Source of the DNA: Azospirillum lipoferum 4B
GTDB lineage: Bacteria > Pseudomonadota > Alphaproteobacteria > Azospirillales > Azospirillaceae
Assembly: GCF_000283655.1 (NCBI RefSeq)
Contig: NC_016622.1
Coordinates: 384,501-448,500, forward strand
DNA length: 64,000 bases
Direction: 5' to 3'
Shown: positions 23,817 to 30,777 of the stretch, piece after piece
How positions within the stretch are numbered: position 1 is the first letter of the stretch
Layout of the letters: each line of letters opens with the position of its first letter
Made by a program: the position numbers and the translations under genes
Notes under the pieces: model-generated
What the model saw: the letters and a program-made list of their open reading frames with translations, nothing else
What the model was told of the DNA's origin: nothing
Database searches by the model: none

Positions 23817-23835
23817 GTGGTGCCGGATACAGGAA
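23817..23835. repeat. Left attachment repeat (attL) of integrated element
   Basis: GTGGTGCCGGATACAGGAA is identical to 30701-30719, which is the 3' end of tRNA-Thr on the minus strand (part of the T arm, acceptor stem, CCA). The match continues as CGA after one mismatch. Such a tRNA-end copy marks the far end of an element inserted by a tyrosine integrase. Confidence 0.88.
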
Positions 23836-23839
23836 GCGA

Positions 23840-24072
23840 CCAAGACCGGAAAAATGCCTGTAAAATCAATATCTTAGGCGGGCGTTCGGACGGGGTGGAC
23901 CTGCATGGTGGACTGTTGCGAAGTCGTCACGATGCGTCCAGCGCGCCCGGCGGTCAAGGGATTCCAGCAGGTCGATATTGACGCCTGAGACGGGCTTTGG
24001 ACACTTTTAGGGCGTTGAGAGCTTGTTGCAAACTCAACCGGTACGAAAGTGAATGTATGAGCTGAGGAAGCA
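23840..24072. other. Left end of element, non-coding
   Basis: About 230 bases between attL and the immunity gene. GTTGAG/CTCAAC at roughly 24014-24040 can form a long-loop hairpin. No gene is supported; the stretch likely holds the promoter of the immunity gene. Confidence 0.4.
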
Positions 24073-24291
24073 ATGGACGGGCTGATTCCATTTGTCGGCA
24101 GCGCACTTGTTATCACGGCGTTGCTGGTGTTGATGTTCTTGCCGACCTTTTTCGCTATCAGGCGCAATCACTCCAGCTTTTGGGGGATCGTTGTCGCCAA
24201 CGTGGTCTTTGGCTGGATGCCGCTGTTCTGGATATTTATCCTGATCTGGTCATTGAGTGGAAGGCACCCGCCGGAGCGGTCGAGGGCGTGA
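24073..24291 (+). CDS. Superinfection immunity-type membrane protein
   Basis: A 72-residue inner-membrane protein with two helices (ALVITALLVLMFLPTFFAI and VVFGWMPLFWIFILIWSL). The LPTFFAIRRNHSSFWGI joint and FGWMPLFWI match the superinfection immunity protein family (PF14373, related to phage T4 Imm), members of which can block DNA entry of related phages. GAGGAAGCA precedes ATG 24073. As the first gene inside attL, pointing inward, it is likely cargo that protects the host or element against phages. The defence role is inferred from the family. Confidence 0.75.
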   Translation: MDGLIPFVGSALVITALLVLMFLPTFFAIRRNHSSFWGIVVANVVFGWMPLFWIFILIWSLSGRHPPERSRA

Positions 24292-24327
24292 CCGGCGGGC
24301 GCTGGCGCGGTATCAGGCGGATCGTAT

Positions 24328-24855
24328 TCATTCCTCGTATCCATCGGCCTGATCTTCGCCAAGATCGACCTTCCGGCCCTTTAGCTCGGCGGCCTCTTCG
24401 TCGCTCATGACGGTAATCCTGAGTTCCGCCGGTGCGCCCGTGTCTCCGCCTTCCGTCAGCACGCCCAACCGGCGGAGTTCGACCAGCGCGATAGCGCCCG
24501 CCATGGTCGCCGCACGGGTCGCGCTGGGCGACAGGCCGCCGACTGCCAGGGCATCATGGGCGCGGAGGAGGGCGTGCATCGCAAAGCTGGTCGCCAGCGC
24601 CGTAGGGTCGGCGATGATGTCCAGAGGCGTCGAGGTGCCGCTTGGTGCTGGAGATGTGGAAGGGGGAGCCGAAGCTCCCCCACTACCTGCCCGCTCGCGC
24701 TTCCGGCGGAACTTGCTGACTGCCGCCGGGCTGACGCCTGCGAGGTCCGCAAGCTCGCCGACCGTGGTCCGCCCGGCGGCCAGCGCCGACCACATATCGT
24801 CGGTGATGCCGGCCAGACCGGGCTTGCTGGTGTCTCGGCGAGTGCTGAACGCCAT
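24328..24855 (-). CDS. HTH-containing hypothetical protein
   Basis: A 175-residue protein. Residues about 27-55 look like a helix-turn-helix (TTVGELADLAGVSPAAVSKF followed by basic RRKRERAG). A Ser/Pro-rich linker leads to a helical C-terminal half ending in an acidic tail. Last gene of the minus-strand element operon; three bases separate it from the gene before it. Likely a DNA-binding accessory or regulator of the element; the architecture somewhat recalls small terminase subunits, but this is not established. Confidence 0.6.
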   Translation of the reverse strand: MAFSTRRDTSKPGLAGITDDMWSALAAGRTTVGELADLAGVSPAAVSKFRRKRERAGSGGASAPPSTSPAPSGTSTPLDIIADPTALATSFAMHALLRAHDALAVGGLSPSATRAATMAGAIALVELRRLGVLTEGGDTGAPAELRITVMSDEEAAELKGRKVDLGEDQADGYEE

Positions 24856-24858
24856 GGG

Positions 24859-25359
24859 TCAGCCCCCGGAACGCCCCAGGGCGGCGACCATGGCGTCGCG
24901 CGTGGTCTGGGCAATCGCTTGCTCATGATCCAGCGCGCTGGCGATGCGGGCGACGCCACGGGCAGGGCCGGCGGTAGCGTCGGAGCCGCTGAAGGTCGTC
25001 ACGAACGGATCGTCGAGCGCCAGCCCTGCGATGTGGGTCCGCTGCCGCCCGGTGATGGGCGCGTCCTTCGGTGCCTTGGTGAACTTCGGGATTCGGCTCG
25101 CACGCATGGCGTCCAGCATGGCGCGGTTGGCGTCCTGTTCGGGGTTCGGTGGTGCGCCCGCGTCGACCATCGCAGATTCGACCTGTCGAAGCTCGGCAGT
25201 GCGGAGGCGCTGCCAGCGCTGCCAGCGGTCGCGATAGTTCGCCTCGAACTCATAGCGTTCGTCGTCGGTGGCCGTCCCGGCTGCGACCTGTCGGAAAAGC
25301 TGTCGGGCAGCCTCCCATTCGTCGATGCTCGCAAAACCGGCCTTGTCAAAAGAACTCAT
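24859..25359 (-). CDS. Hypothetical element protein
   Basis: A 166-residue soluble, charged protein (starts MSSFDKAGFASIDEWEAARQ) predicted to be helical: EFEANYRDRWQRWQRLRTAE could form a coiled coil. ATG 25359 follows AGGAG at seven to eight bases and overlaps the upstream stop (ATGA), so the two are translationally coupled. No family recognised. Confidence 0.6.
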   Translation of the reverse strand: MSSFDKAGFASIDEWEAARQLFRQVAAGTATDDERYEFEANYRDRWQRWQRLRTAELRQVESAMVDAGAPPNPEQDANRAMLDAMRASRIPKFTKAPKDAPITGRQRTHIAGLALDDPFVTTFSGSDATAGPARGVARIASALDHEQAIAQTTRDAMVAALGRSGG

Positions 25360-25609
25360 TGGGGAACTCCTGAAACGGTAGACAGTTGAGAACCGAGACG
25401 GAGAGCGAACCGGCTGGTGATGGATTGCGCTTCCCTTAGGGCGGCTTGAAAATCCTTCGGGGTCTCCCCGAGTTCTTCCATATCCCGCCGGTAAGCGCGG
25501 TAGAGGTCGTGCAACAGCTTCGTCGTATCGAGGCTGTTCGACCGCGCAACGCCCCGGACGATCTGGGTGATCGTCTTTGCGCTGCAATCGAACATCGCTG
25601 CGATGTCCT

Positions 25610-26605
<996 letters not shown>

Positions 26606-26641
26606 ATTCTCCTCACGACCATTGAGAGCCTCTGCTACCAC

Positions 26642-26682
26642 AAGGCCACCGACGCGCCAACGTCGGCGGCCTTATTCTTTTT
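26642..26682 (+). terminator. Strong hairpin with T-run upstream of rep
   Basis: AAGGCC-A-CCGACG (26642-26654) pairs with CGTCGG-C-GGCCTT (26661-26673) with one internal mismatch, loop CGCCAA, then ATTCTTTTT. It reads as a terminator on the plus strand, where no protein gene precedes it; the rep gene is on the other strand. It could end an antisense RNA against rep, or be the structured origin where Rep nicks. Confidence 0.7.
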
Positions 26683-26749
26683 GGGAAGTCGGATGAACTC
26701 CGTCAAGGCCGCCCGGTTAACGAAACAATTTGCGCAGGAACAAAACGAA

Positions 26750-26791
26750 CCCCACTCGATTTGAAGGAGGTGGGTCTTTTTTTTGATGGCT
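26750..26791 (+). terminator. Weak second terminator-like hairpin
   Basis: CCCAC pairs with GTGGG around a 13-base loop, followed by eight T residues. It lies about 90 bases before the next plus-strand gene. Short stem, so only moderate support. Confidence 0.4.
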
Positions 26792-26881
26792 TCCCATATC
26801 ATTCATCGCTGAATGACAAGTTGATGTCTTGTTCCGGTACATCATCGGAAAATGAGGATGTATATTTTCTATTGACTTAAA

Positions 26882-27097
26882 ATGTTCTTTGTGATGGAAG
26901 AATGGGATTCGTTTTCATTCGAGAGCGGAACAATGCGAGTGCGGATCGAATTTCACGATTTAGCCCTTGACAATTTCTCTGCGGATGATGCGCAAGAGCT
27001 TGTCGCGGTCATGCTGACGGAAGGCGTGATGCCATACGCCCTACGGGCCGGAGAGGTCGAGATTACCGCCTGGAAACCTATCCCCGACGAAGGGTGA
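26882..27097 (+). CDS. Small acidic element protein
   Basis: A 71-residue acidic protein of unknown function (SFSFESGTMRVRIEFHDLAL, then DDAQELVAVMLTEG). Its base composition is clearly more AT-rich than the host genes. The start is uncertain: ATG 26882 or ATG 26894 (MEEWDSF), neither with a good binding site. It ends 30 bases before a terminator and converges on the serine recombinase. Confidence 0.5.
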   Translation: MFFVMEEWDSFSFESGTMRVRIEFHDLALDNFSADDAQELVAVMLTEGVMPYALRAGEVEITAWKPIPDEG

Positions 27098-27126
27098 TAA
27101 CCGGCAGTAACCGGGGAATAGGAAAT

Positions 27127-27156
27127 AGGCGCTGGTCATTCGGCCAGCGCCTTTGT
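27127..27156 (+). terminator. Intrinsic terminator after small acidic gene
   Basis: AGGCGCTGG (27127-27135) pairs perfectly with CCAGCGCCT (27144-27152), followed by TTGTC. The T-run is short. Confidence 0.65.
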
Positions 27157-27183
27157 CATGTTCGGGGATGGCGATGACGCGCC

Positions 27184-27867
27184 TTATGCGACGCGCTGTA
27201 GAACGCGCTGCACCTGCGTTGCGCTCCACTGGCCGCCCCGTGCCGTGGGGATACCGCGGGCATTCAGTTCCTCGGCGATCTGGCGCAGGGAGGTATGGCC
27301 GGCGGTCTTGATCGTCTCAATGAGCGGAAGGAGGTCAGCGGCCAGTTGGGCGGCCTTGGACTTCACGGCGGCAGCGGCGGCTTTCTGGCCGGCTCCCGCA
27401 ACAAGGTGATGGGCGGCATTACGGTTCCACTGTCCGTCACGGGCGACCTTGGCGGCCAGGGCGGCTTTCGTCCGTTCGGAGATCAAGCCCGCTTCCAACT
27501 CTGCAACGGCGGCCATCTGCTGGAGCATGAAGCGCCCGGCAGCACCGACAGGGATCGAGGGCAGGTCGCAGAACAGGACATCAACGCCCGAGTCGATCAA
27601 CTTCATGAGGAAGGCGGCATTGCGCGCCAGTCGGTCGAGCTTGGCAATCACCAGCGTCGCGCGGTGAACGCGACAAGCGGCCAGAGCGGCGGCAAGCTGG
27701 GGACGGTCGGTCTTGCGACCTGATTCAGTCTCAACGAACTCGGCGACGGGCGGCCAACCACCGGACGATTCGATGAACCTGCGGATTGCGTCGCGCTGCG
27801 CATCAATGCCAAGGCCGCTACGGCCCTGTCGGTCGGTGGAGACGCGGAGATAGCTCACGACCTTCAT
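27184..27867 (-). CDS. Serine recombinase (resolvase/invertase type)
   Basis: A 227-residue site-specific recombinase. The catalytic domain begins MKVVSYLRVSTDRQ with nucleophile Ser10 and Arg8. VIAKLDRLARNAAFL is the conserved region with the Arg pair. ELEAGLISERTKAALAAK is the E helix. The C-terminal part contains an HTH-like segment (TSLRQIAEELNARGIPT). ATG 27867 gives the canonical start, with AAGG upstream; an in-frame ATG at 27894 lies in the palindrome. It may resolve element multimers, invert a segment, or act as an alternative mobility enzyme. Confidence 0.88.
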   Translation of the reverse strand: MKVVSYLRVSTDRQGRSGLGIDAQRDAIRRFIESSGGWPPVAEFVETESGRKTDRPQLAAALAACRVHRATLVIAKLDRLARNAAFLMKLIDSGVDVLFCDLPSIPVGAAGRFMLQQMAAVAELEAGLISERTKAALAAKVARDGQWNRNAAHHLVAGAGQKAAAAAVKSKAAQLAADLLPLIETIKTAGHTSLRQIAEELNARGIPTARGGQWSATQVQRVLQRVA

Positions 27868-27890
27868 GCCCGCCTTGACCATGACCGTCA

Positions 27891-27934
27891 CCATTACACT
27901 TCATCGTTACGTGCGTTGCGATGAAGTGTAATGG
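27891..27934. promoter_or_regulatory. 44-bp palindrome between the two recombinase genes
   Basis: CCATTACACTTCATCG (27891-27906) is repeated perfectly in reverse complement at 27919-27934 around a 12-base spacer. It overlaps the upstream end of the serine recombinase gene and is 17 bases from the integrase stop. No T-run, so not a standard terminator. It fits an operator or the crossover site of the recombinase. Confidence 0.7.
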
Positions 27935-29627
27935 TTGGCTCGACTGTCTCGTTATGCGTTTTTGGAATCGGAGAGATTCGCGCCTGGAATCCCTCTCCGG
28001 CTCCCGATGAACTCAGCGTCAATCCCGTCGTATGCGATGGCGTCGATAGCCTGCCTGAGTGCTGGCAGCTCCGCCCCCTTGCTGAACCGGCCCCGTTCGC
28101 CTGGAATCTCATGGCCGGATAGCTGGCTCACGATGTCGGGATGCACTTCGGCCCGGACCAGCGCGGTAATGCTGGTGTGGCGGAACGAATGGAAGTCCGG
28201 TCCTTCGATACCGAGTTGCCGCCGGAGCCGACCGAACCGCTTGGAGTAGTCGAAGCTCAACCTGTTGGCCGCGCCGCCCGCCTTGAGTTCCGGCCAGAGC
28301 ATCCTGATCCCGGCGGCTCGACGCTCTGCGACAAGATCCATGAAGCCAAGCGCCAGCACGGTCTTGTGGATGGGCACCCTCCGAATGGCGGCAGCAGACT
28401 TCAGCCGCCGGGCGGGCGCGTCGCCGTCTGCGCCGTCGTCGCTCGCGTGGATGTCGAGATAGGGGATACCTCCTTCCTCCCGGATGTCGGCGACGCGAAG
28501 CTGCGCAAGCTCCTCCAGGCGGCAGGGGTGGAACAACGCCAGCACCGGGAGCCACCAATCTACATCGCGGATGATCTGGGGGCCGGGTTCGGTGCGGCGG
28601 GTCGCACCCTTGCAGCCGCGCCAGATTGGGGCGTTGAAAAGGGTGCGGAGTTGCTCGACGCTCCAGGCGTCGCGCTCTTGGTTCCGGCGGATTGTCCGCT
28701 TCGGCTTCTTATATGCCGCGCGGGCGATGTTCTGATCGGTTAGACCCCGGTCCACCGTCCAGCCCCAGAAGGCCGATAGGATCGTCGCGTATTTTTTGAC
28801 CGTCACGGGCGAGATGCGCTCAATGGACGGGTCGGCGTCGGCCATGGCGACAAGCTCGACGATGCTCTTGCCCTTGAAGCGCGGGCGCTTCGTCCGGTGG
28901 GCTGGCAGGCGCTGGAGTGCGCTGACGAACTCGCCGATGTCGGCGCGGGTGTATTGGCTCAAGGGCCGGTCGCCCGCAATCTCCATGAAGATGCTGGCCG
29001 TTGCCTGCGCGTCGATGTCCATTGCTGGCCGCCATGCGCCAGCCGCCCGCTTCTCCAGGCTGTACCGCTCGAACGCCTTGCTGAACGTCTGGTCGTTCTT
29101 CCTCTGCGCTGCTGGCGCTGGCGCTGGCGCGGGAGCCGGGGCAGGGAGTGTCTCGGCGCTGGCGAACAGAGGATCGACGGGGCGGGCACTGTAGTCGCCT
29201 TCCAGGCGCGCGACGCCGAGACGCGCTGCCTCTGCCGCCGCGCGGAGAAGGGCGCGTGCCAGTTCGACGACGGTCGGCGAATCGGGGGAGGCATCAATCC
29301 CATGCTGCGCCAGCAGAGCAACGGCGGACCCGCTCGCAACGGCGATATCGTTGCGCCGCAGTAGGTCCGCCGCACCTTCGGCGCGGTCGCGGTCGCGCTG
29401 GACAGCACGCTCCAAATCGTCAGGATCGTCGAGCCGTTGCGCCGCCGCTTCCCGCTCGAACTCGGCGAGCGCGTCTGCGAACCACTGCCGGGCGAGACTG
29501 GCGATTTGCTCCGGGGAGAGGGTGGGATCGTTCTTGACCATGGCGAACAGCTGATCGGCGACAACGGCAAGGCGTCGGGCTTGCCGCAGGGCGGTCGCTT
29601 TTGTCAACGGGCCGAGAACGCGGCTTA

Positions 29628-30471
29628 GGGCGTGTCGTCAGTTGAGCCAGATGACAGCCGACACGAGGTAAACAGCCGCCAAGAAAGTGCTGGCAAGCTT
29701 GTCGTATCGAGTTGCAATGGCTCGGAAGCCCTTCAGCTTGTTGAAGAATCGCTCGACGAGATTACGTTCGCGGTACAAGGCGAAATCGGTATCGCGGGCG
29801 ATCAGCCGATTAGCCTTGGACGGGATGACGGGGACGATGTCGCGCTCCTTCAATGCGTCGATCAGGGCGTCGCCATCATAGGCCTTGTCGGCGATGAGGG
29901 CCTGCGGCTCGACCGCGTCGAGCAGAGGGGCGGCTTGGCTGAAGTCAGAGGCCTGACCGGGGGTCAGGGAGATCGCCACCGGGTTGCCCAAGGCGTCCAC
30001 GATGGCATGGATCTTCGTCGTCAGCCCCCCTCGTGATCGGCCGATGGCTTGGCAGGCGCCCCCTTTTTTCGCGCCCCGGCGCTGTGCTGGTGGGCGCGGA
30101 CGATGGTCGCGTCGAGCATCATGTACTCGTTGTCGCTGTCCTCGGCCAGGGCTTTGAAAAGGCGCTCGAACACCCCGCTCTCGCACCAGCGGCGGTAGCG
30201 GCGGTGGGTGTTCTTCCAATCCCCGAACCGGGTGGGCAGGTCGCGCCAGGGAATGCCAGCCCGGTAACGGTACAGCACCGCCTCGACGAACAGGCGGTTG
30301 TCCTTCGCCGTCCCCCCGACATGGCCTACCCGCCCCGGCAGAAAATCCTGGACCCGCTCCCACTGATCGTCGCGCAAAGCATAGCGTCGCATTCGTCGGC
30401 CCTCCCGTCAGCCGACCCTCTATGAATCACGCATTCCTACCGCTGGGAATCCCATAACTGACGACACGCCC
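29628..30471 (-). mobile_element. IS5-family (IS427-like) insertion sequence, 844 bp
   Basis: Perfect 16-bp terminal inverted repeats GGGCGTGTCGTCAGTT (29628-29643) and its complement (30456-30471). The target duplication is TA (29626-29627 and 30472-30473), typical of this group. It holds one frameshifted transposase. The insertion interrupts codon 35 of the element's integrase. Confidence 0.93.
29638..30392 (-). CDS. IS5-family transposase made by programmed -1 frameshift
   Basis: The first frame (30392-30021) encodes a DUF4096-like N-terminal domain (ALRDDQWERVQDFLPG, GIPWRDLPTRFGDW) and the first catalytic Asp (MLDATIVRAH). The second frame, ending at 29638 inside the left repeat, carries the second Asp (LIADKAYDGD) and Glu (YRERNLVERFFNKLK). 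The frames join at A_AAA_AAG (30069-30063 on the minus strand), a classic -1 slippery heptamer in the correct phase. The fusion would be 251 residues, normal for IS427-group DDE transposases, so this is probably active rather than broken. Confidence 0.9.
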
Positions 30472-30700
30472 TAGCTCCCGCTGCCGGAACCGGGGCCCGA
30501 GATCGTCGGGAATGCGGCGACGGAAGAGATAGCGGCCAGCTCGGAGCCGGAGAAAGGCGTTGGGCACGACAGACATCCTGTGTGTCCATCATGCCACTGC
30601 CGCCGCCGTGGACCCCTCCGGTGGACCTGCTGCGTGGACCTACGGCCGGAAGGGTGGAGCTAACCCGAAAGATTAAGCCTTTACAGGGGCTTAGGGAGGT

Positions 30701-30719
30701 GTGGTGCCGGATACAGGAA
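30701..30719. repeat. Right attachment repeat (attR) within tRNA-Thr
   Basis: GTGGTGCCGGATACAGGAA, identical to 23817-23835. It covers the CCA end, the 3' acceptor strand and part of the T arm of tRNA-Thr, so the tRNA stays whole after integration. Confidence 0.88.
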
Positions 30720-30777
30720 TCGAACCCGTGACCTTCTGATTACAAATCAGCTGCTCTACCAGCTGAGCTAATCCGGC
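30702..30777 (-). tRNA. tRNA-Thr(TGT)
   Basis: A 76-base cloverleaf with encoded CCA. The acceptor stem is GCCGGAT/ATCCGGC, the D arm GCTCAGCTGGTAGAGC, the anticodon arm CTGATTTGTAATCAG (anticodon TGT) and the T arm contains GGTTCGAATCC. It is the integration target of the adjacent element and lies downstream of rlmB on the same strand. Confidence 0.97.

What the first reader, a model, noticed from the sequence alone, without database searches (positions are those of the whole stretch)
23817..30719. Compact 6.9-kb integrative element in tRNA-Thr with Rep, two recombinases and an immunity gene
Exact 19-bp direct repeats bound a gene set of superinfection-immunity-type protein, two HTH-like proteins, an HUH Rep, a serine recombinase and a tyrosine integrase. 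No structural phage or conjugation genes are present. This combination suggests a phage-satellite-like or plasmid-like integrative element that replicates by rolling circle. The repeats and gene order are seen directly; the lifestyle is inference.
Basis: partly seen in the sequence, partly recalled or inferred. Interest (0 to 1): 0.82.

Follow-up and report, generated by a model that had tools for sequence, protein, structure and literature searches.

The report
Small tRNA-integrating, satellite-like defence element
A 6.9-kb mobile element sits in a threonine tRNA gene of an Azospirillum-type soil bacterium; it belongs to a family, apparently undescribed, of small phage-satellite-like elements, about half of which carry anti-phage-type genes, and this copy looks immobilised because its integrase is damaged.

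Summary
Confirmed: exact 19-bp repeats (23817-23835, 30701-30719), the right one in the 3' end of tRNA-Thr(TGT), bound a real integrated element. Joined flanks match empty sites in two congeners; a 92%-identical copy sits at the same tRNA in Azospirillum sp. B506.

It cuts off the integrase's first ~34 codons, and the catalytic-Tyr position reads Phe (Tyr in 7 of 7 aligned relatives): this copy is probably fossilised.

It is one of 12 related elements I assembled (11 from one bacterial family, 1 from another), at tRNA-Thr or tRNA-Gln where the target was found. Usual plan: tyrosine integrase, serine recombinase, swappable replication gene, hth2, orf3, hth1, variable cargo. Seven of 12 hold phage tail genes or remnants near hth1 (tape measure, neck, tail assembly). 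Six of 12 have anti-phage-type cargo: type I restriction genes, PADLOC beta/cll, here a superinfection-immunity-type protein.

Best reading: a satellite-like, defence-carrying family using phage tail-module parts. No helper, packaging or excision was shown; rolling-circle replication rests on a weak HUH motif match; hth1 as small terminase is inconclusive. The open-access literature searches run here listed no description.

The parts
23817..23835 (+). attL, 19-bp direct repeat
30701..30719 (+). attR, 19-bp direct repeat overlapping the 3' end of tRNA-Thr
30702..30777 (-). tRNA-Thr (TGT), integration target
23974..24355 (.). variable cargo slot: replaced by about 1.46 kb with a 408-aa ORF in Azospirillum sp. 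B506 (G039), between a conserved 156-bp att-proximal stretch and the hth1 3' end
24073..24291 (+). superinfection-immunity-type small protein (Imm_superinfect)
   Evidence: PF14373 E 6.8e-12, phrog_1039 2.4e-16
24328..24855 (-). hth1: N-terminal HTH, helical hairpin and C-terminal helix in a low-confidence model; family core gene, possible TerS-like protein or regulator
24859..25359 (-). orf3: family core gene, C-terminal GVxRI-type motif
   Evidence: dN/dS 0.16; alignment
25356..25691 (-). hth2: small HTH-like family core gene
25610..26605 (-). putative replication initiator with HUH motif (H143-x-H145) and Y189-x-x-K192
26606..26881 (.). divergent regulatory/origin-candidate region with a hairpin at 26642-26673 also present in B506
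   Evidence: 26590-26960 is 96% identical to B506; hairpin
26882..27097 (+). orf71: small divergent ORF, counterpart in G007; one amino-acid change in 54 aligned residues against B506
27184..27894 (-). serine recombinase, 236 aa
   Evidence: PF00239 9.1e-30; dN/dS 0.10
27890..27935 (.). 46-bp imperfect palindrome between the two recombinase genes; palindromes at a like position in 4 of 7 relatives scanned
27952..29607 (-). tyrosine integrase, main part; nucleophile position (codon 28084-28086) reads Phe
   Evidence: PF00589 8e-9; alignment; position
29626..30473 (-). IS5-family insertion sequence with 18-nt perfect inverted ends, two overlapping transposase frames (30021-30392 and 29638-30363); absent from the B506 copy
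30475..30576 (-). N-terminal piece of the integrase gene, separated from the rest by the IS

Best explanation
The region is a site-specifically integrated mobile element (about 6.9 kb including a 0.85-kb IS), a short member of a modular family of satellite-like elements in Azospirillum and at least one other alphaproteobacterial lineage. Proposed mechanism. The tyrosine integrase recombines attP with the 3' end of tRNA-Thr or, in relatives, tRNA-Gln (integration shown by repeats and empty sites; the enzyme's role is inferred). The divergent orf71/rep region acts as the switch, and the Rep slot, here an HUH-motif protein, replicates the excised circle (inferred). The serine recombinase may resolve multimers at the palindrome beside it (inferred). 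hth2, orf3 and hth1, which sit next to tail-completion, tape-measure or tail-assembly genes in relatives, are probably the part that interacts with a tailed helper phage (inferred). The end near attL is a cargo slot; in this copy it holds a small membrane-type protein of the superinfection-immunity family, expected to block DNA injection by related phages (inferred from its family). In this genome the element is probably an immobile remnant, because the IS splits the integrase gene and the catalytic Tyr position is Phe.
For: Attachment repeats, tRNA and empty sites. 23 of 32 congeners with both flanks on one contig have at most 1.3 kb between them, consistent with an empty site. A 92%-identical copy at the same tRNA in Azospirillum sp. 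B506 without the IS. Repeats of 18, 32 and 28 bp at the tRNA-Thr elements of G039, G007, G042; 28 and 45 bp in the tandem G032 site; 17 bp at the tRNA-Gln elements of G018, G020, G082. Core genes related across elements. Tail genes near hth1: tape measure PF20155 1.3e-29 and neck phrog_927 1.5e-5 in G018; tape-measure remnants in G007, G042, G045 and a neck remnant in G032; tail assembly, neck and tape measure in G004; tail-assembly-like protein in G137. Anti-phage-type cargo: type I restriction and methylation proteins between hth1 and the distal repeat in G018 and G020, the restriction protein beside hth1 in G044; beta/cll in G045 and type I R-M in G082; Imm_superinfect here. Integrase lesions. 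dN/dS below 0.5 for 6 of 7 ORFs compared with B506; orf71 had too few changes.
Against: No helper phage, packaging signal, particle or excision was found or testable. The window and B506 copies have no tail gene, so the satellite reading leans on relatives; with the G018 tape-measure and neck queries 5 of 12 elements show none. hth1 as small terminase is not established: the best PHROG matches are generic DNA-binding families; TerS families appear only at E 0.0098 to 0.51 and not at all for G137; PDB matches are generic transcriptional regulators; the AlphaFold models were too poor for a fold search (pLDDT 44 and 36). The Rep proteins of window and G007 or G137 show no significant similarity, and the window Rep profile finds none in G007, G137, G042, G004 or G082. 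hth2 was not detected in G004 and only weakly in G082 (E 0.0071). Three viral-contig scans with hth1 or integrase queries found no relative; a fourth found only a copy of the G045 element. In G082 the restriction genes lie between the two recombinase genes, not at the attL-side slot. The G137 integrase also has an in-frame stop, so this is not the only broken one. CRISPR spacers from two arrays gave no convincing match.
Confidence: 0.6

Rival explanations
1. Prophage remnant lineage: the elements are decayed lambda-like prophages that kept integrase, replication and pieces of the tail operon, with no independent mobile life cycle now.
For: Tail genes and remnants in 7 of 12 elements; tape measure truncated or split in G042, G007, G045 and G004; integrase damaged in the window and with an in-frame stop in G137.
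Against: Related core genes recur at two tRNA targets and in two families, with clean attachment repeats and empty sites, and low dN/dS against B506. No capsid, portal or large terminase match came up among the proteins scanned, but not every ORF of the relatives was scanned.
Confidence: 0.2
2. Integrated small plasmid or mobilizable element: the HUH-motif protein is a rolling-circle Rep or relaxase, and the element spreads by conjugation or natural uptake without phage dependence.
For: HUH motif with YxxK; strand/helix order compatible with an HUH endonuclease in a low-confidence model; serine recombinase as a plasmid-type resolvase; no structural genes among the window proteins scanned.
Against: No plasmid record matches Rep at E 1, and the 12 plasmid DNA matches listed of 229 records all cover the IS only; Rep is replaced by an O-like/HTH_36-type protein in relatives; tail genes occupy the same operon.
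Confidence: 0.15
3. Plain defence island: accumulated genes at a tRNA hotspot, with no common mobile backbone.
For: The tRNA-Thr site carries other inserts, e.g. Cas3e/Cas7e genes and an array in G001.
Against: Shared gene order and attachment repeats across five tRNA-Thr elements and other sites.
Confidence: 0.05

Closest known systems
Phage-inducible chromosomal islands (PICIs) of Gram-negative bacteria (PMC6092414, passages read)
   Same: Small att-integrated element, integrase at one end, divergent regulatory region, replication gene, small packaging- or interference-type genes, accessory genes at the far end, no full structural set.
   Different: No AlpA/Stl-type regulator or primase among the 10 window proteins scanned; cos/pac not searched; carries a serine recombinase and an HUH-motif Rep; relatives carry tape-measure and neck genes; induction and packaging unknown.
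P4-like satellites with antiviral hotspots (PMC9122126, passages read)
   Same: A small slot beside conserved genes with exchanged anti-phage-type genes.
   Different: No P4-type gene among the Pfam or PHROG matches obtained here; different replication genes and integrase; the slot lies near attL.
PICMIs of Vibrionaceae (PMC10803314, passages read)
   Same: Minimal satellite: integrase, small ORFs, replication function, no capsid remodelling genes.
   Different: No AlpA and no DUF3987/DUF5906 primase match; integrated at tRNA-Thr, not beside fis; different host class.
Integrative and mobilizable elements (definition recalled; papers seen in listing only)
   Same: tRNA integration and an HUH-type nuclease candidate.
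   Different: No relaxase, coupling-protein or T4SS family match among the 10 window proteins scanned; tail genes in relatives.

Membership tests
Site-specific tRNA-integrating element | Direct repeats, one in the tRNA 3' end, plus unoccupied sites in relatives | tested here: met
Site-specific tRNA-integrating element | Intact integrase in this copy | tested here: not met
   IS within the gene and Phe at the nucleophile position; uninterrupted frame in the B506/G039 copy; activity not measured
Element family described here | Tyrosine integrase, serine recombinase, replication gene, hth2, orf3, hth1 in that order from the tRNA | tested here: met
   window, G039, G007, and with other Rep types G032, G018, G020, G044, G045; exceptions: G042 lacks hth1, G137 has serine recombinase and Rep beyond hth1, G004 has no integrase or hth2 found, G082 differs in order
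PICI | Specific att site and integrase | tested here: met
PICI | AlpA/Stl-type master regulator and primase-rep module | tested here: not met
   no such Pfam, PHROG or NCBIfam match among the 10 proteins scanned
PICI / phage satellite | Helper-dependent induction and packaging into phage particles | not testable with these tools
   needs induction and particle sequencing
PICI | Terminase small subunit (in some PICIs) | tested here: inconclusive
   hth1: TerS PHROGs at E 0.0098-0.51 only, none for G137; model pLDDT 44
Phage satellite | No complete structural/lysis gene set of its own | tested here: met
   10 window proteins scanned; for relatives only part of the ORFs were scanned
Rolling-circle replicon | HUH endonuclease with catalytic Tyr | tested here: inconclusive
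   motifs present and conserved in B506; PF23343 E 0.048, below cut-off; model pLDDT 36
Integrative and mobilizable element | Relaxase and oriT | tested here: inconclusive
   no relaxase family match in 10 proteins; oriT not searched
Integrated filamentous phage | Zot-type ATPase and coat genes | tested here: not met
   no match in 10 proteins; small coat-like ORFs were not sought

The most novel reading that the evidence does not exclude
A new satellite family that parasitises long-tailed phages through the tail rather than the capsid: members carry their own tape-measure and neck genes beside a core of small DNA-binding proteins, and the tape-measure locus is repeatedly gutted and replaced by other cargo, including, in this window, a protein of the superinfection-immunity family, a kind that may block injection by acting on tape-measure function.
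Probability: 0.3. Interest if true: 0.78.

Novelty: new variant of a known kind. Interest (0 to 1): 0.55.

Why it matters
Phage satellites are known mainly from Firmicutes, Enterobacterales and Vibrionaceae (from the passages read and recall). A modular satellite-like family in Azospirillum, a plant-associated nitrogen fixer (recalled), with swappable replication modules, tail genes and anti-phage-type cargo, would extend the range of hosts and hijacking routes and offer a compact place to look for new defence genes (for example the 408-aa ORF of unknown function in the B506 copy). The window copy shows how such an element can be frozen in place while its cargo stays.

Tried and rejected
Structure prediction of hth1 and Rep: two-sequence alignments only, pLDDT 44 and 36. 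I ran no fold search on them because low-confidence models give meaningless matches.

Viral-contig scans with window hth1, window integrase and an hth1 alignment of relatives found no relative; the 239-aa protein alignment found one contig, a copy of the G045 element. Rep against phages and plasmids: no match at E 1. G018 hth1 and the G018 238-aa protein against phages: no match at E 1. The tape measure of G018 matched 327 phage records, all under 60% identity, none covering 80% of it. Solved-structure searches gave only generic regulators or nothing useful.

CRISPR spacers (46 extracted, the G018 array counted twice) against 10 element stretches: only matches of 13-18 bp, treated as chance.

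Considered and rejected: integrated filamentous phage; the G005 tRNA-Gln insertion as a family member (integrase relative with a 26-bp repeat, but no hth1 or serine recombinase found); the six weak class-level hth1 hits of 37-56 model positions, which cover the HTH only. Tape-measure or neck remnants in the window or G039: none, only chance alignments.

My gene finder is a simple codon-usage caller; it missed short or atypical genes (Rep and hth2 of the window among them), so I read ORF lists directly for several loci. One search translated minus-strand matches on the wrong strand; one search repeats those correctly. It showed that the stops that one search lists for G044 and G045 are the normal ends of the gene, and that only G137 has an in-frame stop inside.
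Full report
OBSERVATION. The 19-bp repeats are exact, at 23817-23835 and 30701-30719, and extend to 22 of 23 bp. With up to 3 mismatches they are the only two occurrences in the window; 100 shuffles gave a mean of 0.02 and never two. The right repeat lies over the 3' end of tRNA-Thr(TGT), 30702-30777 minus. Joining the two window flanks in a script gave a single alignment through the junction in both congeners tested, G026 and G012 (81% and 83% identity). In 37 congeneric genomes the tRNA-side flank was located; 32 of them had the other flank on the same contig: 23 have 1.3 kb or less between them, 4 have 2.2-4.4 kb, 4 have 11-26 kb, and 1 (G011) is not syntenic. The element is therefore a real insertion at a site that mostly looks empty.

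HOST AND NEAREST COPY. The window's own assembly is not held. The one genome-contig hit with the Rep alignment is Azospirillum sp. B506, NZ_BADK01000194.1, the same contig as unnamed G039 judging by length and coordinates. G039 is of the same genus as G001, the nearest genome to the window, so I take the window to be Azospirillum (inference; the family name Azospirillaceae is recalled). The B506 copy sits at the same tRNA-Thr, is 91.75% identical over 24356-29623, and lacks the IS. In place of window 23974-24355 it has about 1.46 kb with a 408-aa ORF that has no Pfam or PADLOC match at E 0.01. So the superinfection-immunity-type gene sits in an exchangeable slot between hth1 and a conserved 156-bp att-proximal stretch.

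GENES OF THE WINDOW COPY. Imm_superinfect (PF14373 6.8e-12; phrog_1039 2.4e-16). hth1, orf3 and hth2: no family above a curated cut-off and only weak PHROG matches. Rep: HLHIL and Y-x-x-K; strand/helix order compatible with an HUH fold, but in a model of pLDDT 36; PF23343 only at E 0.048. Serine recombinase (9.1e-30) and tyrosine integrase (8e-9). Against B506 the dN/dS point estimates are 0.28 (hth1), 0.16 (orf3), 0.48 (hth2, which overlaps rep), 0.39 (rep), 0.10 (serine recombinase), 0.23 (integrase); orf71 has one change in 54 codons and is not informative. Window 26590-26960, spanning the rep-orf71 divergent region, is 96% identical to B506.

IS AND BROKEN INTEGRASE. An IS5-family element (NF033580 7.1e-51 and 4.8e-40 for its two frames; 18-nt perfect inverted ends) lies at about 29626-30473. 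It separates the first about 34 codons of the integrase (30475-30576) from the rest. The Tyr nucleophile position reads Phe at codon 28084-28086 in the window and Tyr in 7 of 7 aligned relatives; the further relatives G045, G082 and G137 also show a Tyr at the corresponding place by inspection. The G039 copy has an uninterrupted frame (596 aa). I infer that the window copy cannot excise by its own integrase; mobilisation in trans by another integrase is not excluded. Of ten relatives' integrases, one (G137) has an in-frame stop inside the match.

THE FAMILY. I assembled 12 elements: the window, G039/B506, G007, G042, G032 (tRNA-Thr); G018, G020, G044, G082 (tRNA-Gln); G045, G004 (target not determined); and G137 (another family of the class, target not determined). 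Repeats: G039 18 bp, G007 32 bp, G042 28 bp; G032 has repeats of 28 and 45 bp around tandem insertions; G018, G020 and G082 17 bp; for G044 the contig ends first. Sizes between repeats range from about 6.9 kb (window) to about 21 kb (G018, G020). hth1 was found in 11 of 12 (not G042). A serine recombinase is present in 12 of 12, of more than one subtype. A tyrosine integrase is present in 11 of 12 (not seen in the G004 stretch fetched). hth2 is found in the window, G039, G007, G042, G032, G018, G020, G044, G045 and G137, weakly in G082 (E 0.0071), and not in G004. An orf3 C-terminal GVxRI-type motif is shared by the window and the 7 relatives aligned. orf71 was compared only with G039 and G007. 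Among 82 family genomes the hth1 profile gave 14 hits at E<=0.001; 7 strong ones (E<=1e-44) were rows of the profile itself, 1 new one was intermediate (G082, 3.7e-6), 6 were weaker. In 385 class genomes there were 7 hits, one strong (G137, 1.2e-30), six weak and short. The replication slot varies: HUH-motif proteins in window/B506 and in G007 without detectable mutual similarity, a further HxH-motif type in G042/G032, G007 and G137 similar only around the motif, HTH_36-type in G018 (E 6.5e-5, below cut-off) and O-like in G020 (phrog_391 4.7e-4), with similar ORFs by inspection in G044 and G045; G004 and G082 were not examined for this.

TAIL GENES. In G018, hth1 is followed directly by a 150-aa neck/tail-completion protein (phrog_927 1.5e-5) and a 989-aa tape measure (PF20155 1.3e-29). 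Remnants of the tape measure are in G042 (C-terminus, fused to an orf3-like start), G007 (N- and C-terminal ends on either side of a 656-aa ORF that reads, by inspection, as a hybrid histidine kinase) and G045 (both ends fused), and a 52-residue neck remnant in G032. G004 has a tail assembly protein (phrog_32 1.7e-49), hth1, neck and an interrupted tape measure. G137 has a tail-assembly-like protein between orf3 and hth1 (phrog_778 3.5e-6). That is 7 of 12. With the G018 tape-measure and neck queries none was found in the window, G039, G020, G044 or G082; other tail genes were not sought there systematically.

CARGO. G018 and G020 carry a type I methyltransferase (E 1.1e-278 and 4.2e-278) and a type I restriction-like protein (5.3e-32 for G018; G020 97% identical) between hth1 and the distal repeat; G044 has the same R protein beside hth1. 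G045 has PADLOC 'cll' and 'beta' genes about 2 kb and more from hth1, with the element end unknown. G082 has type I R and M genes, but between the two recombinase genes. With the window's Imm-type gene that is 6 of 12. The G007 kinase and the B506 408-aa ORF have no PADLOC match; cargo of G032, G042, G004 and G137 was not scanned with PADLOC.

MECHANISM AND STATUS OF EACH STEP. Shown: integration at the tRNA, exchangeable cargo slot, related core genes, integrase lesions. Inferred: replication by Rep, resolution by the serine recombinase at the palindrome (27890-27935; palindromes at a like position in G039, G007, G018 and G044, not among the best ones in G042, G032 or G020), regulation from the orf71/rep region, helper-phage use through the hth2-orf3-hth1 and tail genes, phage exclusion by the small Imm-type protein. 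[quoted passage not shown] the link between gp15 and this protein family is my inference.

AGAINST MY READING. hth1 is as compatible with a regulator as with a small terminase. No record of the phage collection matches the G018 hth1 or 238-aa protein at E 1. No helper was sought experimentally. The satellite reading is therefore an anatomical argument, at about 0.6.

LITERATURE. Passages read: PMC6092414, PMC10803314, PMC9122126, PMC11773190, PMC10883804; abstract and outline: PMC13376191; others in listings only. The searches (open-licence PMC full texts; four of the lists, were capped) listed no paper that by title or abstract describes this family or satellites in Azospirillum; papers outside that library were not searched. 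An E. coli PICI that contributes to superinfection immunity is described in PMC11773190, so that role has a precedent in satellites.

Noticed in passing
L069 5587-15979 (G001): The nearest genome has a 15-kb insert at the same tRNA-Thr site holding Cas3e and Cas7e genes and a 17-copy repeat array: type I-E-like CRISPR-Cas at a shared integration hotspot.
   Followed up: partly
L061 7299-12883 (G032): A second, roughly 17-kb insertion in tandem at tRNA-Thr carries 1131-aa and 730-aa proteins without Pfam or PADLOC match; G035 has an 18.9-kb insert at the same site.
   Followed up: no
L058 10535-13249 (G007): A 656-aa ORF that reads by inspection as a hybrid histidine kinase lies between N- and C-terminal remnants of a tape measure gene.
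   Followed up: partly
window 27890-27935: A 46-bp palindrome between the two recombinase genes; G039, G007, G018 and G044 have palindromes at a like position, with different sequences except in G039.
   Followed up: partly
L089 3910-5172: In the viral contig matching the G045 element, a second 420-aa integrase-like ORF lies directly beside the family-type integrase, suggesting a neighbouring prophage or tandem insertion.
   Followed up: no
L056 7564-8790: 408-aa ORF in the cargo slot of the B506/G039 copy with no Pfam or PADLOC match: candidate unknown defence gene.
   Followed up: no
L109 15523-16582 (G018): A second CRISPR repeat array, 17 copies, beside genes that look like type I-E cas by inspection (not scanned), outside the tRNA-Gln element.
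   Followed up: partly
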